From contig NZ_CP044232.1 of assembly GCF_008727775.1 (NCBI RefSeq), positions 3,586,162 through 3,650,161 on the forward strand: a stretch of DNA of 64,000 bases. Direction: 5' to 3'. Source of the stretch: Microbacterium lushaniae (GTDB taxonomy: Bacteria > Actinomycetota > Actinomycetes > Actinomycetales > Microbacteriaceae). Every line of letters starts with the position of its first letter. The first letter of the stretch is position 1. The position numbers were made by a program, and so were the translations under genes. Below the pieces are notes generated by a model. The model was not told where the DNA came from and ran no database searches. It was given only the letters and a program-made list of their open reading frames with translations. Shown piece by piece: positions 35,010 through 44,734 of the stretch.

Positions 35010-35897
35010 GTGGCCCGAGAATCGGCCGGTGAATCGGTGCTGCGCCGCCACATGCGCGTGCTCGAGAGCTTCGATGCGTGGCATCCCTTCTTGACCCTCA
35101 GCGAGATCGCGGAGGCCAGCGGTCTCGCCGTCTCGACGGCCCACCGCCTGATCGCCGCACTCGAGGGCGAGGGCCTGCTCGAGCGGCTGCCCGACCGCAC
35201 CTACCGCCTCGGCGTGCGGCTGTGGGAGTTCGCCAGCCGCACCCCCGGCGCCGTCGGGCTCCGGGAGATCGCACGGCCCTGGCTCAGCGCCGTGCACGAG
35301 CGCGTGCGCGAGCACGCGCAGCTCGGTGTGCTGAGCGGACGGGACGTGCTCTACATCGACCGGGTCTCCACGCGCGACGCGGTCGTCAACGCGACCCTCG
35401 TCGGCGGGCGGATCCCCCTGCACGCGTCTTCCAGCGGGCTGGTTCTCCTGGCGCACGCGGACGCGACACTGGTCGACGATGTCATCGCTCACGGTCTCCG
35501 CACCTACACCGAACGCACGATCCGCTCGGGACCCGAGCTGCGGGCCCACCTGCGTAAGGTGCGCGACGACGGGTACGCCGTGACGGACGGGCACATCCAC
35601 CCGGAGTCGCGCGGCATAGCGGTCGCCGTCACCGGCCCCGGCGGGGGCGTGTATGCCGCGATCGGCGTCGTCGTGCCGAACGACGGTGTCTCACCCCATC
35701 CGTATGTCGAGCTCCTGCGGCGTGCCGCCGCCGGCATCACGCACGACCTCGCCGTGGCGTACCGCCCCGACGTGGACGAGCGCACCCACGGCATCCGCTC
35801 ACTCGTGCGCGGCTCGCGCCGGTCGATCGAGTACCTCGAGAGCCTCGACGCCGACCCGCACGAATCCGTCGGCTTCCGTCTCGCAGCGCCGCCGTGA
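35010..35897 (+). CDS. IclR-family transcriptional regulator with a recombined 3' end
   Basis: The 295-residue protein has an IclR winged helix (LTLSEIAEASGLAVSTAHRLIAALEGEGLLER) and the effector domain (SGRDVLYIDRVSTRDAV; SRGIAVAVTGPGG). IclR proteins often control aromatic or acid catabolism, so it may regulate the LigM-like gene directly before it. The last codons (AAPP and the TGA) lie in a block repeated at 39478, so the C-terminus may have been replaced or trimmed by recombination. The start is a GTG with GAGGAGG upstream. Confidence 0.87.
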   Translation: MARESAGESVLRRHMRVLESFDAWHPFLTLSEIAEASGLAVSTAHRLIAALEGEGLLERLPDRTYRLGVRLWEFASRTPGAVGLREIARPWLSAVHERVREHAQLGVLSGRDVLYIDRVSTRDAVVNATLVGGRIPLHASSSGLVLLAHADATLVDDVIAHGLRTYTERTIRSGPELRAHLRKVRDDGYAVTDGHIHPESRGIAVAVTGPGGGVYAAIGVVVPNDGVSPHPYVELLRRAAAGITHDLAVAYRPDVDERTHGIRSLVRGSRRSIEYLESLDADPHESVGFRLAAPP

Positions 35898-36107
35898 CGG
35901 TGACTGCAGCGCCCAGAGGAATCCACGTCCCCCAGTGGTGGGGTCGTCATGCCGCCGATCAGAGACCGTGGCGACTGAGGAGCCCGCGCATTGCGGCAGT
36001 GAAGGCCGCGGGGTCCTCGAGGTTCGGGTAGTGCGCACCGGGGTGATCACGAACTCTCCCTGCTGCCCGCTTGGATGGCCGGTGGCCGATCCCACGTACC
36101 TGTGACC
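35886..36107 (-). pseudogene. Hydrolase 3'-end remnant in a duplicated block
   Basis: From 35886 to about 36066 the sequence is nearly identical to 39478-39660, which contains the 3' end of the intact alpha/beta hydrolase at 39550-40404 and its downstream bases. The remnant stop is at 35959-35961. After a deletion of about 70 bases, similarity resumes for about 30 bases (CCGATCCCACGTA) to 36107. Only the C-terminal part of a hydrolase remains, on the minus strand. The rest of the 35898-36219 gap shows only the leader of the SOUL gene. Confidence 0.75.
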
Positions 36108-36219
36108 CGGTGTCGATGCGCGCGGATCTTCCTCCCGCGTCCCGGCGGGGTTAGCGTGAACCCACGCTCCCGCCCGGCGAGGAGCGCGGCACGAGCCGCC
36201 TGACCGGAGAGGGTCAGAG

Positions 36220-36825
36220 ATGACCGAACAACAGCCATACGAGGTCGTACGCACGTTCGCCGAGTTCGAGCTGCGGCACTACCCGGAGCATGCCGTGGCT
36301 GAGGTCATGGTCGACGGCCGGTTCGAGGATGCGGGCAATCGCGCGTTCCGGTACCTGTTCTCCTACATCAGCGGCGAGAACGAGCCGGCCGAGAAGATGG
36401 CGATGACCGCTCCGGTCGTCCAGGAGAGGCAAGGCACGAAGATCGCCATGACAGCTCCCGTCGTCCGGGAACCGATCGACGGCGGGGCCGACACCCCAGA
36501 CAGCGGCGACTACCTGGTCGCCTTCGTGCTTCCCGCCGCCCTCACCGCGGCGACCGCTCCGCGCCCCACCAATGCCAGGGTCCGCGTGCACGCCGTCCCC
36601 GAGCGCCTCGTCGCCGCGCTGCGCTATCGCGGCCGGTGGACGGAGGACGCGTATGAAGAACATCTCGACCGGCTGCGCGCGGCCCTCGCGGCGGAAGGAC
36701 TGGCTGCGACGGGCGACGCCCGGTTCGCGCGGTTCGATCCGCCCCTGTGGCCCGCCTTCCTCCGCCACAACGAAGTGATGCTGGATGTGTCCGGGCAGGC
36801 CATCAAGGAGGAGGAAAGGGGATGA
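36220..36825 (+). CDS. SOUL-family heme-binding protein
   Basis: The 201-residue protein matches the SOUL heme-binding family: YEVVRTFAEFELRHYPEHAVAEV, FRYLFSYISGEN and the hallmark pair MAMTAPVV / IAMTAPVV. It probably binds heme or porphyrin in the cytoplasm. An ATG with GGAGAGGG upstream starts it. It overlaps the next gene (ATGA), so it is cotranscribed with the F420-type oxidoreductase. Confidence 0.88.
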   Translation: MTEQQPYEVVRTFAEFELRHYPEHAVAEVMVDGRFEDAGNRAFRYLFSYISGENEPAEKMAMTAPVVQERQGTKIAMTAPVVREPIDGGADTPDSGDYLVAFVLPAALTAATAPRPTNARVRVHAVPERLVAALRYRGRWTEDAYEEHLDRLRAALAAEGLAATGDARFARFDPPLWPAFLRHNEVMLDVSGQAIKEEERG

Positions 36826-37232
36826 CCCCGTCATACGACGACCCCATCATCGAGGAGTTCCGCGCGAACCGCGGCACCGTCGGCCGTTTCGGCCGGAGTC
36901 TCGTGCTGCTGCACCACGTCGGCGCGAAGACCGGCACCGAACGCGTCTCGCCCGTCATGGGCATCCGGGACGGTGAAGCATGGCTGATCACCGCCTCCAA
37001 GGCGGGGGCTGACGAGCATCCCGCCTGGTACCGCAACCTCCTCGCGCATCCCGATGTCGAGATCGAGACCCCCGACGACGGGAAAGTCGCGGTGCACGCG
37101 ACCGACCTGGTCGGCGCAGAGCGGGATGCGGCGTGGGCGCAGTTCCTCGCGGCAAGCCCCGGGTTCCGTTCCTATGAGCAGCGCACCACGCGCATCATCC
37201 CGGTCCTGCGGCTGTCGCCGCGCGACGGCTGA
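36822..37232 (+). CDS. Deazaflavin-dependent nitroreductase-family protein (DDN type)
   Basis: The 136-residue protein matches the F420-dependent nitroreductase/quinone reductase family (PF04075): FRANRGTVGRFGRSLVLLHHVGAKTGTERVSPVMGI and HPAWYRNLLAHPDVEIE. Members use the deazaflavin F420. Its ATG overlaps the SOUL stop, giving a heme/redox pair. Confidence 0.88.
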   Translation: MTPSYDDPIIEEFRANRGTVGRFGRSLVLLHHVGAKTGTERVSPVMGIRDGEAWLITASKAGADEHPAWYRNLLAHPDVEIETPDDGKVAVHATDLVGAERDAAWAQFLAASPGFRSYEQRTTRIIPVLRLSPRDG

Positions 37233-37276
37233 CTTGCGACCAGCGAACGCCTGGCGACATCGCCGACCTTCTCGCG

Positions 37277-38632
37277 CTACGGGGCGGCAGCGAGTCGCTG
37301 GAAGAATCCGTCGATCTGCGCCTCGACGGTGCCGACGGCATCCGCCTGATCACGCCCCTCGACGGTGAACGAACTCTCGATGACCAGCAGCACGTCTCCG
37401 CCCGAGACCGCCCCGCGGATGTCGAACCGCGGGTCACCGACGCGCCCGTCGAGATGGATGAAGCGGCCCTCGTACAGCTTCAACTGACCGCTCCACCCCT
37501 CACCCGCGACGTCGATGACCTCGCCGCGTCCCCTCACGCCGTAGTCGTAGCCGTATTCGGTCGCCTTCGGGGCGGTATCGAGATCCCCGACGAGCCCACC
37601 GTAGTCACTCGTGTGCTCGGCCACCGCGGCCTGCGCCGCCGCCTCGTCGGGCTGGATGTACGCCCGCAGCCAGAGGTGCTCGCTCCACTCCCCGCCGGGC
37701 ACGAGGAACCGATCGCGGCCGTCACCCTGCGGGACCACACCCTCGGGCAGCGCGAGATCGACGCTCAGCGAGGCATCCTGACCTTGGCGAGCATCCTCGC
37801 ACGGCGGGTCTCCGGGGCACCGAACCGACACCTGGTGGCCTGGCGGGAGGTCACTCTCGGTCGGCAGGGCCGCGGCGAGCCGACTCACCGTAGTCACCCT
37901 GGGCGCATCGGTGGGATCGATGGTGGCAAGGCGCTCGAGATAGTCGGCGACGGCCTCCGCGCAGTCGGCCTCCGCAAGGCCGTCGGCGTCCACGGCGTAG
38001 CGCTGCGAGCTGCAGGCGATGAGCGCGGAGTCGTGGACGATGGCGAGGAGCGCCGACTGGCGCTCAGCGCTCGGGTCGTCTTCCGGTGCGGTGAGCACCG
38101 AGGTCCACTGACCCTGCACCCCCTCCCAGCCTGTGATCTCGATGTCGTCAGACTCCCCGGTTCCTGTCTCACCGGCGGTGAAGCCGTCCTCGATCGACTC
38201 CGGAGCGATGTCGAAGTCTCCCGTCCTCGCAGCGGCCCGGTCGCGCTTTTCTGCCAGCGCCTCCTGTGCCGCATCGGCATCGGGGTAGAGCGCGACGTTG
38301 AACTCGAAGTACAGTCCGCCCCAGACCTCCGGCTCTGCCGCGTCAGACGGAGCCGGGATCGAGGCGAGCAGCATGACCTCGTCATGGTCGGATGCCGGGC
38401 CGCAGTACTCGCCGCCGGGACAGCGACGCTCCATCACGAAGCCCGCAGGCAGCGCATCGGGGCCGGGAAGCGCCGCGACAGCGTGGTCGAACGAAGCGAC
38501 GGCGACCGCCACTTCGGAGGGAGCGGGGGCCCCACCACTGCGACCATCCTGTGTCGCGCTGCATCCTGCGAGTGTCAGCAGCGCGAGCAGCGCCGCGCCC
38601 GCCCGCAGCTTCGTCGTCGTGATCACGTGCAT
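37277..38632 (-). CDS. Hypothetical lipoprotein
   Basis: The 451-residue protein has a lipoprotein signal with lipobox LTLAGC (cysteine at about residue 24). It comprises two similar halves: FVMERRCPGGEYCGPASDHDE... and HQVSVRCPGDPPCEDARQGQD..., each followed by an acidic domain, which suggests an internal duplication. It is convergent with 36822-37232. No named family was recognised; it is probably anchored on the outer face of the membrane. Confidence 0.65.
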   Translation of the reverse strand: MHVITTTKLRAGAALLALLTLAGCSATQDGRSGGAPAPSEVAVAVASFDHAVAALPGPDALPAGFVMERRCPGGEYCGPASDHDEVMLLASIPAPSDAAEPEVWGGLYFEFNVALYPDADAAQEALAEKRDRAAARTGDFDIAPESIEDGFTAGETGTGESDDIEITGWEGVQGQWTSVLTAPEDDPSAERQSALLAIVHDSALIACSSQRYAVDADGLAEADCAEAVADYLERLATIDPTDAPRVTTVSRLAAALPTESDLPPGHQVSVRCPGDPPCEDARQGQDASLSVDLALPEGVVPQGDGRDRFLVPGGEWSEHLWLRAYIQPDEAAAQAAVAEHTSDYGGLVGDLDTAPKATEYGYDYGVRGRGEVIDVAGEGWSGQLKLYEGRFIHLDGRVGDPRFDIRGAVSGGDVLLVIESSFTVEGRDQADAVGTVEAQIDGFFQRLAAAP

Positions 38633-38808
38633 GCCCCCGTTGGATGCCGCTGAACCGGCCTGCCTCACGTTAGAGGTGCGACTGCACGGAACACAATTCG
38701 CACAACTCCACGCCGGTCCTCGCGGACCGACCGCAAGCCGCCACCGCCGTCCCCACGGTCTTCAGAGGGGAGGTGCGTCCCGCCGTCCCCGCCACGTGAC
38801 GAGCCGGC

Positions 38809-39081
38809 TCACTCCACGTCGCCGGTCGACGGCCTGATCTGGCTCAATCGTCTCTTGAACGCCAGGAACCCGGTGCTCCAGGCGACAGCCACCGCGACGG
38901 AGCCCGAGCTGGCGGCAACCATCCCTGCCGCCGATCCGTTCGCCGCCGACAGAATCCCCCAGGCGACCAACGCCGTCAGTGCGATCACCGACCCTGCGAC
39001 GAGCCAGCCCATGCCGGCGTGCAGGCGACGTTCCTCACTCCTGGTGGCGTTCGACCGCTCATACTGCACTCCGTCGCTCAT
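38809..39081 (-). CDS. Small two-helix membrane protein
   Basis: The 90-residue protein has a soluble N-terminus (MSDGVQYERSNATRSEERR) and two membrane segments (about residues 24-43 and 48-66), with a basic C-terminal tail. It stands alone between the lipoprotein gene and the small reading frame at 39177. No family is recognised. Confidence 0.55.
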   Translation of the reverse strand: MSDGVQYERSNATRSEERRLHAGMGWLVAGSVIALTALVAWGILSAANGSAAGMVAASSGSVAVAVAWSTGFLAFKRRLSQIRPSTGDVE

Positions 39082-39176
39082 AGCGGCGACGGTACCCGTG
39101 CCGGGGCCCTCGCAACTCCGCCGCGCGACGGAGATTCTGCCCGTCCTGCCGCGGGCACCCCGCGCCCCGGCGCGCG

Positions 39177-39296
39177 TCAGCGGCTGAGGGCGGCCTCGGC
39201 CTGCAGCCGGCCCAGCTTCTCGGGGTTCGCAGACGTCCATCGGCCCCGCCCATCCCTGGCATAGCGGGCGATCGGTCGAAATGTCCCGATGGACAT
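39177..39296 (-). CDS. Possible 39-residue reading frame
   Basis: An ATG at 39296 opens a 39-codon frame that begins MSIGTFRPIARYARDGRGR and ends KLGRLQAEAALSR. It lies about 60 bases beyond the distal copy of the dnaB 3' end. It could be a real small gene, or the tail of a larger gene that once followed dnaB. I did not recognise a family. Confidence 0.3.
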   Translation of the reverse strand: MSIGTFRPIARYARDGRGRWTSANPEKLGRLQAEAALSR

Positions 39297-39357
39297 CGCG
39301 TGGACACGTCCACTGCGAGAGGGACAACTCCGAAGAAGACCTGCAAACCGACAGCCC

Positions 39358-39478
39358 GCTACATCTCCGGGGCCATGTCGGTGAAGCGGGAGTAGTGGCC
39401 CTGGAAGGCGACGGTGATCGTGTCGGTGGGGCCGTTACGGTGCTTGGCGACGATGAGGTCGGCCTCGCCGGCGCGCGG
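39358..39478 (-). repeat. Distal copy of the dnaB 3' end (121-bp direct repeat)
   Basis: This copy is identical over 121 bases to 43366-43486, the last 40 codons of dnaB including its stop. It is not part of any intact gene here. Its right end is exactly where the hydrolase-downstream block begins. The two copies are in the same orientation and flank about 4 kb. Confidence 0.97.
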
Positions 39479-39549
39479 CGCCGCCGTGACGGTGACTGCT
39501 GCGCCCAGAGGATCCACGTCCGCGAGTGGTGGGGTCGTCATGCCGCCGA

Positions 39550-40404
39550 TCAGAGACCGTGGCGACTGAGGAACCCGCGCATCGCGGCAGTGAAGGCCGC
39601 GGGGTCCTCGAGGTTCGGGTAGTGCGCACCGGGGGTGATCACGAACTCTCCCTGCTGCACGCTGCTCGCCAACCGTCGTCCCATCCGCAGGTGGTCCTTC
39701 CCGTCCTGGGCGCCGCAGAGCGCGAGGACCGGCACGTGGATGGCCCGTAGCCGATCCCACGTATCTGCGACGGGAGTCGGCGGCACGGGCGGAAGCGGCA
39801 CACCGTTGCCGTCCAAGCGAAGGTGGTGAGCGAGGGTCTCCCGTGCCATCGTCTCGACCAGATCCCAGACCTCGCGGTTGAGCTCCTCCCGTGTGCGTTC
39901 GGGGCCGGAGGTGAACGCCATGAAGCCGTCGATCCATCCCTCGAGATCGCCCTGCTGTTCGGCCGACCGCCAGCGTTGCAGGGCGCTCAGGCACCAGGGG
40001 TCGTCGTACGCCGGCTCGCTGGTGCCCGTACCGCTGACGACGAGAGCGGCCACGCGGTCGGGGTACTCCAGCGCGACGTCGACCGCCGTGCCCCCGCCCA
40101 TGGACAGCCCCGCGAGCACGGCTTGTTCGATGCCGAGGGCGTCGAGCAGATCCACCACGTCGTCCGCGAGGCGATAAGGGACGTCGGCGTCAGATGATCC
40201 GCCATGCCCCCGAGCATCGGGCGCGATGACGCGCCGCTCGGGGAAGGCGTCCAGCTGCGGGTTCCACATCCGACGGTCTACCGCACCGCCATGGAGGAAG
40301 ACGAGTGGGGTTGCGTGTGCCACCCCACCAGATGCTTCGGCGTACGTGATCTCCTGGTCGTCGAGGTCGAGGTGGTTCGGGTTCGGGTTCGGGTTCGGTG
40401 ACAT
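39550..40404 (-). CDS. Alpha/beta hydrolase, MarR-linked
   Basis: The 284-residue protein has an alpha/beta hydrolase core: LVFLHGGAVDRRMW (oxyanion), ARGHGGSS, nucleophile elbow AGLSMGGG, aspartate in LCGAQDGKDHLR and histidine in TPGAHYPNLEDPAAF. The N-terminus carries an NPNPNPN run encoded by a six-base tandem repeat at 40374-40398. It is divergent from a MarR-type regulator, with two MarR-like operators over its start. An alternative TTG start three codons upstream exists. Its 3' end is duplicated in decayed form at 35886-36107. Confidence 0.88.
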   Translation of the reverse strand: MSPNPNPNPNHLDLDDQEITYAEASGGVAHATPLVFLHGGAVDRRMWNPQLDAFPERRVIAPDARGHGGSSDADVPYRLADDVVDLLDALGIEQAVLAGLSMGGGTAVDVALEYPDRVAALVVSGTGTSEPAYDDPWCLSALQRWRSAEQQGDLEGWIDGFMAFTSGPERTREELNREVWDLVETMARETLAHHLRLDGNGVPLPPVPPTPVADTWDRLRAIHVPVLALCGAQDGKDHLRMGRRLASSVQQGEFVITPGAHYPNLEDPAAFTAAMRGFLSRHGL

Positions 40405-40452
40405 GACAACCAAGGTGTCATTATTGAGGACCGTTTGGCAACCCAGGTGTCA
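40404..40452. promoter_or_regulatory. Twin MarR-type operators between hydrolase and marR
   Basis: Two 17-base dyads of the form TGnCA-N7-TGTCA occur: TGACAACCAAGGTGTCA (40404-40420, over the hydrolase start codon) and TGGCAACCCAGGTGTCA (40436-40452, just before the marR start). Their shared direct-repeat core is AACCnAGGTGTCAT. They fit binding by the MarR protein encoded next door. Confidence 0.7.
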
Positions 40453-40462
40453 TGATGGTGGT

Positions 40463-40924
40463 ATGCCTGCAGCCCTCCGTCCCGACGACCTGGCCAAAGG
40501 TCTCGCCCAGATCTTCGTCGCCATCGGACCGGTGTACCGCAAGGCGGCGCGGGTGGTGGAAAGCAGCGAAGCCGCCAGCGGGATGTCGGTCGGCGTGCGC
40601 GCCGTGCTCGACCACCTGTACCGCGAGGGCGAGCGGACCGTTCCCCAGATCGCCGAGAGCCTCGAACTCAGTCGGCAGTACATCCAGCGCATGGTCAACG
40701 ATGCGTCTGGGGACGACTTCGTCGAGCTCGTCGCCAATCCGGCACACCGTCGCTCGTCCCTCGTGCGACTCACAGGAGACGGCCGAACAGCGATCGAGCG
40801 GGTGGTCGCCCGCGAGCACGAGGTCATGGCACGCATCGGCGGAACGCTCACCGCCACCGACATCGAGGCGACCCTGCGAGTGCTCCGGCACATGCACACC
40901 GCGCTCGACGAGCTGACCGGCTAG
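40463..40924 (+). CDS. MarR-family transcriptional regulator
   Basis: The 153-residue protein has a MarR winged helix (EGERTVPQIAESLELSRQYIQRMVNDASGDDFVELVANPAHRRSSLVRLTGDGRTAIE). It is divergent from the hydrolase. The spacing of two similar dyads between them suggests autorepression and repression of the hydrolase, probably relieved by a small aromatic or toxic compound that the hydrolase acts upon; the ligand is inference. Confidence 0.88.
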   Translation: MPAALRPDDLAKGLAQIFVAIGPVYRKAARVVESSEAASGMSVGVRAVLDHLYREGERTVPQIAESLELSRQYIQRMVNDASGDDFVELVANPAHRRSSLVRLTGDGRTAIERVVAREHEVMARIGGTLTATDIEATLRVLRHMHTALDELTG

Positions 40925-40958
40925 GAGATCAGGCCGGCGCGCACTCCCGCGCTTCCCG

Positions 40959-42299
40959 TCATACCGGCCTCTCCGTGGGGTATTCGCCTCCCGCCGGTCC
41001 GCGGGCAACCGCGACGACCGAGGTGAGGCTACCCCCAAGGGCGCACACGGCCACCGTGGCAGCGAGGGGTGCGAGGGGCAGGGCGCCGACGCCGCCGGTT
41101 CCCGCCCCGACCATAGCGGGCAGCGCGGAAAGAAGCGACACCAAGACGGCCACCGCCGCTCCCGTCAGGACCGCGGCCGAGGTCTGCGCCGCGACCGTGC
41201 TCATGGTCTGTGCGCGAGTCTCGCCGACGAGCCGAAGCGCGACCAGCTCGCTGCCCCGGATCGATGTCGAGGCCACGACCGCACCGCACACCGCGATCGT
41301 GGCGTAGACGGTCACCATCATCACCAACAGAGCAAGGAACGCAGGGTTCATGTTGCTGCTGTCGGTCGGGTCAGAAGTGGAAGCAGCCCCTGCCTGTGCC
41401 GCATTCAGCACCACGCCAACCGAGAATACGATCGCCACCGCCAGCGTCACTGGCGTGGCAACGGCTGCGCTCCGATGCGCCTCACGGTACAGATCCCGGC
41501 CGGCATAGAAGAGAGCTCCTGTGGACCGGGCAAGGGTGAGCCGCGCGAGTGGGGGCACGATCACCGGGGCGAGGATGACGAGGATGCTGACGAGCAGAAC
41601 CTCCGTGGTGAAGGTGCTCACGAGGCTGCCTGACGACGTGCGGGACCACAGCCACACCACCGGCACCGAAAGCAGCAGCGCCCCCATCACGCGCGACACC
41701 TTCACTCCCCTGCCCTCCGCTGTTCCTCGGCGGACAGCATCCGCTGGACGGATCCGGGCAGAACGCCATGCAGACGGCACCGTTCCCACACACCCCACCG
41801 ATACCGCGAAGCCACACCCCGCGAGCACGGCAGCTGGGTTGAACGGGAGTGAGTAGTTGCTCGGCATCATCCCGCGAGTAGCGAGCCACGCTGCCAGAAC
41901 GGCGGTCAGAGGCGGAGTGATCAGACTTCCGCCGACGCCGGCTACCAGCGACGTCAACAGACCCTCCGCAAGCAGCATGCGCCGTATCTGCCCGGGCGTG
42001 GCACCTACGGTGCGGAGCAGCGCGATCTCGCGGCGGCGCACAGTCACGGTGAATGCGGCAGACCCGGCCACGATGACGACAGCCATGAACCACACGCACA
42101 CGGCCATCACGCTGAGCAGGTAGCCGCCGGCGACCGCGGCAGCCCGGTCCGAAGCCGACGCCCCGGTCGACGATGCCTGAGCAGCGATCGTCACAGTGAT
42201 CGCTGTCATCGTGAATGCGACGCCGAACCCTTGGGCGAGGATGGAGCCGGCCACCCCCGCGACCCGGCGGCCAGAGATCCAAATCGCAACCCTAAGCAT
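40959..42299 (-). CDS. FtsX-like ABC transporter permease
   Basis: The 446-residue protein has two FtsX-type domains, each with MacB-family helices (RREIALLRTVGATPGQIRRMLLAEGLL in the first; GSELVALRLVGETRAQTM in the second) and about eight membrane segments. It forms an exporter with the ATPase gene immediately upstream, whose stop its ATG overlaps by 8 bases. Substrates of such pairs include peptides and lipoproteins; here it is unknown. Confidence 0.85.
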   Translation of the reverse strand: MLRVAIWISGRRVAGVAGSILAQGFGVAFTMTAITVTIAAQASSTGASASDRAAAVAGGYLLSVMAVCVWFMAVVIVAGSAAFTVTVRRREIALLRTVGATPGQIRRMLLAEGLLTSLVAGVGGSLITPPLTAVLAAWLATRGMMPSNYSLPFNPAAVLAGCGFAVSVGCVGTVPSAWRSARIRPADAVRRGTAEGRGVKVSRVMGALLLSVPVVWLWSRTSSGSLVSTFTTEVLLVSILVILAPVIVPPLARLTLARSTGALFYAGRDLYREAHRSAAVATPVTLAVAIVFSVGVVLNAAQAGAASTSDPTDSSNMNPAFLALLVMMVTVYATIAVCGAVVASTSIRGSELVALRLVGETRAQTMSTVAAQTSAAVLTGAAVAVLVSLLSALPAMVGAGTGGVGALPLAPLAATVAVCALGGSLTSVVAVARGPAGGEYPTERPV

Positions 42300-43071
42300 G
42301 CGTGATTCCCGCCTCGAGTGCGGCGACGCGAGCCGAGATCCGCGAAGGATCCGGCTGGGGGATCCAGCCCGCGATTCGACCGGCGTTCAACAACATGACC
42401 GTGGACGCGTACGCGGCGGTGTCTGCATCGTGCGTGACGAGGAGGACCGTCTGACCCCGCGTACGGCTGAGATCTCGCAGGTACTGCATGACCGAGCGCG
42501 TGCTGGGAGCGTCGAGCGCCCCAGTGGGCTCATCGGCGTACAAGACCGCGGGACGGGTGATCAGCGACCGGGCGATGGCGACGCGCTGCTGCTGACCGCC
42601 GGACAACGCAGCGGGACGGTGCCGCGCGCGGTCGGCGAGCCCCACCGCGTCAAGGGCCTCGAGGACCTCAGCCCTACGCGTTCGGCGACCGGCCAACCGC
42701 AGGGGCAGCTCGACATTCTGCGCCGCCGTCAGCGACGGCAACAGATTGAAGCTTTGGAAGACGAAACCCATACGGGCGCGCCGCAAGCGGGTCCGGCTGG
42801 CCTCGGACAGCGCTCCAAGCCACCTTCCGTCGACGGCGACCCGCCCGCTGCTGACGCGGTCAAGGCCGCTCGCGCACTGCAGGAGGGTCGACTTCCCGGA
42901 TCCCGATGGCCCCATCACCGCTGTGAAGCTTCCGGGCGGAAAAGTGACGCTGACGCCGTCCAGGGCCACGACCCTGCGTCGTCCGCGCCCGAACTCCCGC
43001 GTCACCTTCGAGAGGAGGACGGCTCCAGGAGCCAGATGAGGGTCCGGTGTCTGATACTGGCGCGGGTCCAT
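42292..43071 (-). CDS. MacB/LolD-type ABC transporter ATP-binding protein
   Basis: The 259-residue ATPase has Walker A GPSGSGKST, the motif FVFQSFNLLPSLTAAQNVELPL, signature LSGGQQQRVAIARSL, Walker B VLYADEPTGALD and H-loop VTHD. It is the first gene of a two-gene export operon and is placed directly after the duplicated dnaB end. The 43072-43365 interval before it shows no gene and no clear operator; it must carry the promoter. Confidence 0.92.
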   Translation of the reverse strand: MDPRQYQTPDPHLAPGAVLLSKVTREFGRGRRRVVALDGVSVTFPPGSFTAVMGPSGSGKSTLLQCASGLDRVSSGRVAVDGRWLGALSEASRTRLRRARMGFVFQSFNLLPSLTAAQNVELPLRLAGRRTRRAEVLEALDAVGLADRARHRPAALSGGQQQRVAIARSLITRPAVLYADEPTGALDAPSTRSVMQYLRDLSRTRGQTVLLVTHDADTAAYASTVMLLNAGRIAGWIPQPDPSRISARVAALEAGITHA

Positions 43072-43365
43072 GGCCAGGATTCTCGCCGCCCGCGCCCCTG
43101 GGCGTCATCCTTCCCGAAGCGTAAACAACACGGGTTTCTTACCTCTGCCGGCGGATGCACACTACGCGGGACGGATGAGCAGGAATCGGCGCCCGCGCGG
43201 GCCCACGCGAGCACCACGGCACCGCGGACGGCCACCGGTTCGGTTATGAGGATCGCGATCGGTGGCTTTGCAATTTCGATCAGTTGCGGCGCATTCCGTG
43301 CGACGGCGCCAGTTGCGGCCGCTCATCGCGGGCACGCATCTCGACGGAACTGTTCGAATCGACCG

Positions 43366-43486
43366 GCTACATCTCCGGGGCCATGTCGGTGAAGCGGGAG
43401 TAGTGGCCCTGGAAGGCGACGGTGATCGTGTCGGTGGGGCCGTTACGGTGCTTGGCGACGATGAGGTCGGCCTCGCCGGCGCGCGG
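43366..43486 (-). repeat. Proximal copy of the 121-bp direct repeat (3' end of dnaB)
   Basis: Identical over all 121 bases to 39358-39478. This copy is the authentic end of dnaB, since the reading frame continues upstream without interruption. Confidence 0.97.
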
Positions 43487-44734
43487 GCTGTCTTTCTCGT
43501 AGGCGGCCTCGCGGTGCAGCAGCACCACCATGTCGGCGTCCTGCTCGATCGAGCCAGACTCACGGAGGTCGGACAGCGCGGGCTTCTTGTCGGCGCGCTG
43601 CTCGGGTCCACGGTTCAGCTGCGACAGCGCAATGACCGGGCACTGCAGCTCCTTGGCGAGGAGCTTGAGCGCACGCGAGAACTCGCTGACCTCCTGCTGC
43701 CGCGACTCCACGCGCTTGCCGCTGGTCATGAGCTGGAGGTAGTCGATGACCACCATCTTCAGCCCCTCGCGCTGCTTGAGCCGCCGGCACTTCGCGCGGA
43801 TCTCCACGAGGGTCATGTTGGGGCTGTCGTCGATGTAGAGGGGAGCGTCGTTGATGCGACCGCGCGTGGCCGCGATCGTGGTCCAGTCGCGGGAGTCCAG
43901 CGTTCCCTTGCGCATGCTCTGCAGGGGGATGGCGCCCTCCGCGCTGAGCAGGCGCATGGCGATCTCGCTCCGGCCCATTTCGAGGGAGAAGAAGATCGTC
44001 GGCTGGTTGTGCTTGATCGCCGCCGCGCGGGCGAAGTCCAGCGCAAGAGTGGACTTACCCATAGCCGGGCGGGCGGCGATGATGATCATCTGGCCGCCAT
44101 GCAGGCCGTTGGTCAGCTGGTCGAGGCCGGCGAACCCGGTGGGGATGCCGGTCATCTGGCCGTCTCGCCCGCGGGCGGCCTCGATCTCGTTGACCGCGGC
44201 ATCCACGGCCGTCGTCAGCGGAACGTAGTCTTCGGCGGTCTCCGCGCCGGAGACGTTGTAGATCTCCGCCTGCGCGTTGTTGACCAGGTCCAGCGCGTCG
44301 CCCTGCCCCGAATACCCCATCTGCACGATGCGCGTGCCGGCCTCCACCAGACGGCGAAGCAGAGCCCTTTCCGCGACGATCGAGGCGTAGTAGCCGGCGT
44401 TGGCTGCGGTGGGGACGATGGATGTCAGCGTGTGCAGGTAGTCCGCACCGCCGGCGCGCTGCAGCTCGCCGGTCTTGATGAGCTCGTCGGTGACCGCCAC
44501 GACATCGGTGGGCTCACCGTGCGAGTAGAGGGAGAGGACCGCCTCGAAGATCAGCTCGTGCTTGGGGATGTAGAAATCCGCGCCTCGGAGCGTCTCGATG
44601 ACATCGGCGACCGCATCCTTCGACAGCAGCATCCCGCCGAGGGCGCTCTGCTCGGCGAGCAGGTCGTGAGGGGGCGTGCGTTCGGCCTGGCGGGGTCCGC
44701 CGAGGCGCTCTTCCGAGATGTCGGCGATCGACAC
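43367..44734 (-). CDS. dnaB: Replicative DNA helicase
   Basis: The 455-residue protein has the N-terminal DnaG-binding domain (HDLLAEQSALGGMLLSKDAVADVIE), the RecA-like ATPase with Walker A ARPAMGKST, the arginine-rich ESGSIEQDADMVVLLHRE region and the C-terminal GEADLIVAKHRNGPTDTITVAFQ. It is full length with no intein. The GTG at 44734 is the family start. The rplI terminator and a 700-base gap separate it from the rpsF operon. DnaA-box-like sites lie upstream. Its 3' end is duplicated at 39358. Confidence 0.97.
   Translation of the reverse strand: MSIADISEERLGGPRQAERTPPHDLLAEQSALGGMLLSKDAVADVIETLRGADFYIPKHELIFEAVLSLYSHGEPTDVVAVTDELIKTGELQRAGGADYLHTLTSIVPTAANAGYYASIVAERALLRRLVEAGTRIVQMGYSGQGDALDLVNNAQAEIYNVSGAETAEDYVPLTTAVDAAVNEIEAARGRDGQMTGIPTGFAGLDQLTNGLHGGQMIIIAARPAMGKSTLALDFARAAAIKHNQPTIFFSLEMGRSEIAMRLLSAEGAIPLQSMRKGTLDSRDWTTIAATRGRINDAPLYIDDSPNMTLVEIRAKCRRLKQREGLKMVVIDYLQLMTSGKRVESRQQEVSEFSRALKLLAKELQCPVIALSQLNRGPEQRADKKPALSDLRESGSIEQDADMVVLLHREAAYEKDSPRAGEADLIVAKHRNGPTDTITVAFQGHYSRFTDMAPEM

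What the first reader, a model, noticed from the sequence alone, without database searches (positions are those of the whole stretch)
39358..43486. 121-bp perfect direct repeat of the dnaB 3' end flanks a 4-kb segment
Seen: 39358-39478 is identical to 43366-43486, the last codons of dnaB including the stop, in the same orientation. Between them lie a MarR/hydrolase pair and an ABC exporter, but no integrase. Known: integrative elements often use the 3' end of a conserved gene as attachment site and duplicate it on insertion. Inference: the segment may be an element that lost its integrase or uses one supplied elsewhere, or it arose by recombination between dnaB copies. The perfect identity implies a recent event.
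Basis: partly seen in the sequence, partly recalled or inferred. Interest (0 to 1): 0.75.

Follow-up and report, generated by a model that had tools for sequence, protein, structure and literature searches.

The report
dnaB-end recombination scar at transposon hotspot
A bacterium of the Microbacterium group carries a second, displaced copy of the tail of its essential replication-helicase gene dnaB; it looks like the scar of a recombination event at a spot that, in related species, is a docking site for Tn7-like transposons.

Summary
Confirmed: 39358-39478 equals 43366-43486 (121/121), the only two full copies in a one-contig 3.65-Mb genome. The left copy is the displaced old dnaB end; the right copy completes the working gene. 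The 4-kb segment encodes no integrase and shows no transposon ends at its borders. Its left junction lies in a fossil iclR tail; the presumed home of that sequence, with a decayed hydrolase end, is 3.6 kb away. Best reading: an alternative iclR-to-dnaB stretch from a close relative entered by homology in dnaB plus an illegitimate junction.

Relatives gave more. Beside the left copy (39277-39345) sits a Tn7-like transposon end. In the genus such ends lie 77-80 nt past a conserved dnaB codon block in 26 of 36 loci (76-83 in 32). TniQ lies downstream of dnaB on the same strand in all 24 genomes with both on one contig. One unit is a complete Wadjet system. In two loci the transposon tip supplies dnaB's stop codon. 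My searches found no report of dnaB as a Tn7-like site.

The parts
43367..44734 (-). dnaB, intact replicative helicase gene
   Evidence: ORF 455 aa; DnaB_C 3.6e-106
43366..43486 (-). right repeat copy: 3' end of the working dnaB; no TG-type transposon tip follows it
39358..39478 (-). left repeat copy: displaced old dnaB 3' end, still holding the KHRNG codon block used here as reference point for transposon spacing
39277..39345 (-). Tn7-like transposon end beside the displaced dnaB end; starts 85 nt after KHRNG by the HMM (a TGTCGG lies at 77)
   Evidence: end HMM E 8.6e-16 (this copy was in the training set of 20); independent BLAST matches to relatives, best E 2e-15,
39479..43365 (.). inserted segment, 3887 bp
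39475..39663 (+). left inner end of the segment: fossil iclR tail plus hydrolase 3' end; 180 of 190 aligned positions identical to 35884-36071
39550..40413 (-). alpha/beta hydrolase
   Evidence: PF00561 7e-25; only G000 of 366 genus genomes reaches E 1e-60
40463..40924 (+). MarR-family regulator
   Evidence: PF12802 3e-11
40959..42299 (-). FtsX-like permease of an ABC exporter
   Evidence: PF02687 4e-13; closest other protein 73% identical (7997 candidates scored)
42292..43071 (-). ABC exporter ATPase
   Evidence: PF00005 3e-32
35884..36106 (-). decayed hydrolase 3' end at its presumed home site after iclR (35010-35897, +; iclR name recalled)
36107..39270 (.). older dnaB-adjacent block: SOUL-like and nitroreductase-like ORFs (names recalled), 37277-38632 lipoprotein-like (by eye, no Pfam match), small ORF 38809-39081
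   Evidence: 37267-38698 is 82% identical in DNA near dnaB of G296

Best explanation
The 4-kb segment is an alternative version of the iclR-to-dnaB interval from a close relative. It was taken into the chromosome by homologous pairing inside dnaB on one side and an illegitimate join (about 1 bp of overlap) on the other. The old dnaB end, with its attached transposon tip, was pushed 4 kb away, and the incoming dnaB end completed the gene. The locus is a hotspot because the dnaB 3' end is the attachment site of Tn7-like TniA/TniB/TniQ transposons in this genus. Shown: the repeat, the old flank beside the left copy, the iclR-tail junction, the lack of an integrase in the segment, transposon ends and TniQ next to dnaB in relatives. 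Inferred: the donor, the mode of DNA entry, the order of events, and that TniQ reads dnaB.
For: Old flank: window 39271/39277-39478 aligns through the dnaB end into DNA just after dnaB in G198, G247, G073, G136. Junction: 39475-39663 matches 35884-36071, so the segment begins with an iclR tail plus hydrolase, the order found at the iclR locus. Related events: G006 keeps a 536-bp dnaB remnant 11 kb away, G386 a 27-bp one 2.4 kb away; the G386 block next to dnaB is 88% identical to one next to dnaB of G207. Remnant inner edges share no motif by eye. Second dnaB 3' matches: 24 of 354 genomes, G000 included; one search shows 9 are DnaB paralogues only and G316 has two full copies, leaving 14. A neighbouring control gene gives 2 of 355, not examined further (at most two places scored per genome). 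Hotspot: 597 of 752 pairs with at least 90% identical dnaB ends share under 10 nt after the stop; TniQ downstream of dnaB in 24 of 24 testable genomes; tip spacing 76-83 nt in 32 of 36.
Against: No donor with iclR-hydrolase-MarR-FtsX-ABC-dnaB in one piece was found in the 366 genomes. 121/121 identity also fits a recent duplication within the genome. The homologous crossover leaves no visible trace. Whether this strain takes up DNA is unknown. The segment's own dnaB-side flank matches nothing at E 1e-4 in 110 other loci. The window's own transposon end lies at 85 nt by the HMM, outside the usual spacing.
Confidence: 0.55

Rival explanations
1. Integrative element using the dnaB 3' end as attB, with its integrase lost or supplied in trans; the 121 bp are attL and attR.
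For: Direct repeat of a gene 3' end in the expected orientation; G061 has an exact dnaB-tail repeat at both ends of a 64-kb contig.
Against: No PF00589 match within 100 kb of dnaB in 15 genomes, and one PF00239 match (G293) that lies outside the interval; repeat lengths and inner edges vary with no core seen; left end is an iclR tail; no mobility gene in the segment.
Confidence: 0.12
2. Tandem duplication of the iclR-tail-to-dnaB interval inside one chromosome, after which the left copy was rewritten by later insertions and decay.
For: The hydrolase 3' end occurs twice, and the dnaB ends are identical.
Against: The two dnaB copies have different flanks, and the left one is shared with other species; the iclR-tail/hydrolase copies differ at about 5% while the dnaB copies are identical.
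Confidence: 0.22
3. The 4-kb segment is itself a Tn7-like transposon unit inserted at dnaB.
For: The site is used by such transposons; an ABC ATPase (44.7% identical to the window's) beside a permease-like ORF (by eye) lies in a TGTAGG-bounded unit at the same place in G152, L165.
Against: No TG tip follows the right dnaB copy and no far end was recognised in the window; a 121-bp duplication is far longer than the 5-bp target duplication of Tn7 (recalled).
Confidence: 0.06
4. Assembly artefact.
For: None beyond the perfect identity.
Against: One-contig genome; each copy has its own flank, and the left flank is real in other species.
Confidence: 0.05

Closest known systems
Homology-facilitated illegitimate recombination; sequential displacement of T6SS effector genes in Vibrio cholerae (Kirchberger 2017, PMC5361080, passages read)
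   Same: One homologous anchor, one illegitimate join (proposed there too); the old gene end is shifted behind the incoming block, and displaced pieces pile up
   Different: Here the anchor is an essential helicase gene at a transposon attachment site; donor and DNA entry are not shown
Merodiploid formation by transformation in Streptococcus pneumoniae (PMC3784515, passages read)
   Same: A stretch ends up in tandem in two versions
   Different: There duplications of about 100-900 kb between repeats; here 4 kb with a non-homologous junction
Tn7-like / Tn5053-like transposons (Benler 2021 PMC8649781 and Faure 2023 PMC10293859, passages read)
   Same: TniA (rve), TniB and TniQ genes, TG-type ends with box arrays, insertion at near-fixed distance from a conserved gene site, tandem units, defence cargo
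   Different: Site is the dnaB 3' coding end; the TGTAGG tip can supply dnaB's stop codon. 'dnaB' occurs 0 times in both papers in the listing
e14 in icd of E. coli (recalled, not looked up)
   Same: Element replaces a gene's 3' end and leaves the old end behind
   Different: Uses a tyrosine integrase with a defined att core; neither was found here

Membership tests
Tn7-like transposons (the dnaB-site elements of relatives) | DDE (rve) transposase TniA/TnsB | tested here: met
   L087: rve 4.1e-7, 30.6 bits, just under Pfam's cut-off of 32.6; cluster at 10 of 111 loci, partial in L085 and L086
Tn7-like transposons (the dnaB-site elements of relatives) | AAA+ regulator TniB/TnsC | tested here: met
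   L087: PF05621 7.6e-8; cluster at 9 of 111 loci
Tn7-like transposons (the dnaB-site elements of relatives) | TniQ/TnsD target selector | tested here: met
   L087: PF06527 2e-18, 810 aa; 32 of 366 genomes, 24 of 24 testable downstream of dnaB on its strand
Tn7-like transposons (the dnaB-site elements of relatives) | Insertion at fixed distance from a conserved gene site | tested here: met
   Nearly fixed: 77-80 nt after KHRNG in 26 of 36 ends, 76-83 in 32; exceptions L095 73, L063 and L146 102, L184 120. Where the stop is not at 78 nt, 10 of 12 still lie at 76-83. Seven named loci: all at 78-79, partly the same genomes
Tn7-like transposons (the dnaB-site elements of relatives) | Inverted ends and 5-bp target duplication | tested here: inconclusive
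   Inverse ends in L065, L096, L090 are weak HMM hits (E 0.058, 0.013, 0.0011) plus CCTACA by eye; exact 5-bp TGAGG on both sides only in L090, by eye
Tn7-like transposons (the window's 4-kb segment) | TG-type ends at both borders | tested here: not met
   None after the right dnaB copy; no far end recognised
Integrase-type integrative element (the 4-kb segment) | Tyrosine or serine integrase in or near the element | tested here: not met
Integrase-type integrative element (the 4-kb segment) | att core of constant position | tested here: not met
   Across the genus, remnants differ in length and inner edge
Homology-facilitated illegitimate recombination | One non-homologous junction with a few bp of overlap at most | tested here: met
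   About 1 bp between dnaB and iclR tail, read by eye
Homology-facilitated illegitimate recombination | One homologous crossover with donor DNA | tested here: inconclusive
   Implied by the intact dnaB; no donor sequence found

The most novel reading that the evidence does not exclude
The dnaB 3' coding end is a dedicated attachment site for a Tn7-like TniABQ family in Microbacterium: TniQ reads the KHRNG-coding region and inserts about 79 nt on, and the TGTAGG tip carries a stop codon so that even an insertion inside the last codons leaves a working helicase. Recombination events like the one in the window push an occupied site aside and put a vacant dnaB end in its place, so the hotspot can reload and islands stack outward from dnaB.
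Probability: 0.4. Interest if true: 0.75.

Novelty: new variant of a known kind. Interest (0 to 1): 0.6.

Why it matters
Sites named in the passages read for Tn7-like elements are glmS, a tRNA gene and comM. An essential replication gene as attachment site would explain a hotspot of cargo, defence systems among it, in an actinobacterial genus. It also offers candidate targeted-insertion systems; Benler 2021 says that none of the transposons in its Actinobacteria-dominated clade has been characterised by experiment (whether the present elements belong to that clade was not tested). The window's repeat shows how such a site can be displaced and renewed.

Tried and rejected
Integrase searches by Pfam family in 15 genomes each: nothing inside a dnaB-to-remnant interval. 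The ends of the 64-kb G061 contig were thought to be an element's att sites; its ORFs were listed but not annotated, so it may be ordinary chromosome between two dnaB-tail copies or a circle: unresolved. The TGTCCA-box flank was first taken for native flank and then guessed to be an IS21 relic; one search showed TniABQ genes behind such ends. FtsX in genome contigs: 41 stretches matched a pattern, none a relative (near genomes may be left out there). The segment on plasmids: 630 records match, none over 80% of the query; the 8 listed cover 12-16%, 7 of them annotated ABC ATPase. dnaB tail in phages: 74 records, one at 80-90% identity, the rest lower; of the 8 listed two have no annotation and the others are helicase or hypothetical.

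Results against my reading: no donor haplotype in the 366 genomes; short remnants (17-26 bp, and one of 61 bp) are a modest excess over codon-shuffled controls (12 against about 3 expected in 111 loci). The first spacing count (24 of 28 at 77-80 after dropping four hits on the TGA stop) scanned only 20 nt after the stop; the wider recount gives 26 of 36 and four clear exceptions, of which L146 may be a chance pattern match. G293 has a resolvase on the dnaB contig, 82 kb off. The 111 loci are not a random sample: 20 relatives, 10 chosen because a second copy was known, 78 taken down the ranking by nearness of the dnaB end and 2 more from the double-hit list, and the window. Pair counts are not corrected for kinship; pairs whose similarity after the stop scored under 6 were counted as under 10 nt. 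In one search, 9 of the 24 double matches are DnaB paralogues only and G316 holds two full copies in a fragmentary genome; of the 14 left, 9 (window included) have the remnant downstream of dnaB on the same contig, G117's 100-bp piece is 308 kb away, and G061, G237, G290 and G348 have it on other contigs. In one search, the matches in G018, G020, G232 and G275 are partial or split.

Papers: PMC10293859, PMC8649781, PMC5361080 and PMC3784515 were seen as passages; all others as search listings. Statements of not being in print rest on (26 papers, 15 listed; dnaB in one of these, a language-model paper; none with 5 of 6 terms; 3 papers); no supplements were searched.
Full report
Check. The 121-bp repeat is real, exact and confined to these two places in a one-contig genome of 3.65 Mb. 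The window is the last 64 kb of that contig. Named records among the relatives are mostly Microbacterium: L204, M. hominis NBRC 15708, has the contig length and TniQ of G121, which genome search puts in the window's genus. The right copy belongs to the intact dnaB (43367-44734, minus strand); the left copy is a stump of about 40 codons.

Which copy is old. In G198, G247, G073 and G136 the DNA after dnaB aligns with the window's left flank through the dnaB end (39271/39277-39478). The flank of the right copy matches none of 110 other loci at E 1e-4. So the left copy sits in the older context. The segment's left inner end is a fossil iclR tail followed by the hydrolase, and the same order, with a decayed hydrolase end, exists at the iclR locus: 35884-36071 against 39475-39663, 180 of 190 aligned positions identical. 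The window thus reads iclR, older block, dnaB stump, then iclR tail, newer block, dnaB: two versions of one interval in tandem. At the junction dnaB and the iclR tail overlap by about one base, read by eye.

No recombinase at work. In 15 genomes searched for each family, no PF00589 match lies within 100 kb of dnaB on its contig (nearest: G207, 126 kb). The only PF00239 match so close is G293's, 82 kb from dnaB and 18 kb beyond its remnant; G000 has no PF00239 match. The segment carries a hydrolase, a MarR regulator and an ABC exporter. Of 366 genus genomes only G000 reaches E 1e-60 for the hydrolase, though G386 has DNA traces.

The scar recurs. With the last 301 bp of dnaB, 24 of 354 matching genomes (G000 among them) give two matches, against 2 of 355 for the 3' end of the nearby CCA transferase gene; at most two places were scored per genome, and the two control cases were not examined. 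One search sorts the 24: 9 are DnaB paralogues only, G316 has two full copies, 14 remain. In nine of the 14 the remnant lies downstream of dnaB on the same contig and in the same orientation: G000, G006 (536 bp, 11 kb away), G374, G207, G293 (64 kb away), G180, G291, G252 and G081. G386, below that threshold, keeps 27 bp between its iclR and a 2.4-kb block; that block is 88% identical to one next to dnaB of G207. Inner edges of remnants share no motif by eye. Several of these genomes are close to each other, so the events are fewer than the genomes. This argues for a homologous anchor in dnaB with variable second junctions, and against a fixed att core.

A hotspot with a cause. Among 111 dnaB-downstream loci, 752 genome pairs have dnaB ends at least 90% identical; 597 of them share fewer than 10 nt after the stop. 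In 20 of 111 loci at least three TGTCC/GGACA boxes lie within 130 nt of the stop; in most of these an end beginning TGTAGG or a near variant starts within 12 nt. TGTAGG starts within -3 to +12 of the stop in 26 of 111 loci, against 12 of 10,900 random windows. Inverse ends (weak HMM hits, E 0.001-0.06, with CCTACA by eye) close units of 4.6, 6.9 and 14.8 kb in G293, G136 and G247; in G293 and G247 another TG-type tip follows after 4-5 nt. The 6.9-kb unit is a complete type I Wadjet system, JetA to JetD. A Tmn-like gene lies beside dnaB in L079.

The machinery. A TniA-like cluster occurs at 10 of 111 loci, TniB at 9, TniQ at 5 within the fetched stretch. Pfam supports the names on L087, with TniA's rve match just under its cut-off. 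After the dnaB stop, 9 of the 10 loci have TGTAGG and one TGTCGG, starting 0-7 nt on (printed before its script error). A TniQ search gave 32 of 366 genomes. With dnaB places, 24 of the 32 have both on one contig, and in all 24 TniQ is downstream of dnaB on the same strand: 3.4 to 11.5 kb in 20; 22, 28, 43 and 61 kb in G140, G310, G143 and G148 (recounted). Second copies on that contig lie 45 kb off in G141, 43 kb off in G192 and 177 kb off in G148. In the other 8 (G135, G222, G252, G278, G307, G309, G312, G316) the two are on different contigs.

Near-fixed spacing. All 111 dnaB ends hold the KHRNG block. From its end to the transposon tip the distance is 77-80 nt in 26 of 36 loci with a tip by pattern or HMM, and 76-83 in 32. 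The exceptions are L095 (73, a cut-down end), L063 and L146 (102; L146 may be chance) and L184 (120). In the 12 loci where the stop codon is not at 78 nt, 10 tips still lie at 76-83. So the spacing follows the coding block rather than the stop. In L214 and L218 the tip is at 79 and its TAG is the stop codon of dnaB. Tn7 works in this way at glmS: recognition inside the gene, insertion at a fixed distance (recalled).

The window in this light. The displaced dnaB end still holds the KHRNG block and carries a transposon end (39277-39345), starting at 85 nt by the HMM, with a TGTCGG at 77; the working dnaB end carries none. The event therefore moved an occupied attachment site aside and left dnaB with a vacant one. 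Whether this happens often enough to matter is open. G000 has no TniQ at E 1e-20.

What is not shown: the donor, the way DNA entered, that TniQ binds dnaB, and any movement today.

Noticed in passing
L096 8769-15338 (G136): Complete type I Wadjet (JetABCD) in a unit that begins with a transposon end (TGTAGT...) directly after dnaB and closes with CCTACA.
   Followed up: yes
L079 12089-15673 (G121, Microbacterium hominis): Gene of 1194 aa with a PADLOC Tmn match (5e-43) between dnaB and TniABQ.
   Followed up: partly
L062 16099-17306 (G081); G222, G278, G275, G367: dnaB is interrupted near codon 226-237 by about 1.0-1.2 kb; the frame stays open (872-939 aa) in G222, G278 and G367 but not in G275: intein-like insert, not tested.
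   Followed up: no
G061 contig C14, L069-L072: A 63.8-kb contig with an exact dnaB-tail repeat of at least 68 bp at both ends, while dnaB itself is on contig C26: a long interval between two copies, or a circle.
   Followed up: partly
L066-L067 (G293), between dnaB and its remnant: An uninterrupted ORF of 8,499 aa between dnaB and the displaced dnaB remnant.
   Followed up: no
Streptomyces and Kitasatospora plasmids, hits H27-H34: Plasmids of 55-165 kb carry annotated dnaB genes 83-88% identical to the last 300 bp of the window's chromosomal gene.
   Followed up: no
L049, L051, L079, L085, L087, L167, L172, L177, also L180: A small protein of about 105 aa (weak Rrf2-like match, tested in L079 only) encoded on the strand opposite to TniA and between dnaB and TniA at 8 of 10 TniA loci: possible transposon regulator.
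   Followed up: partly
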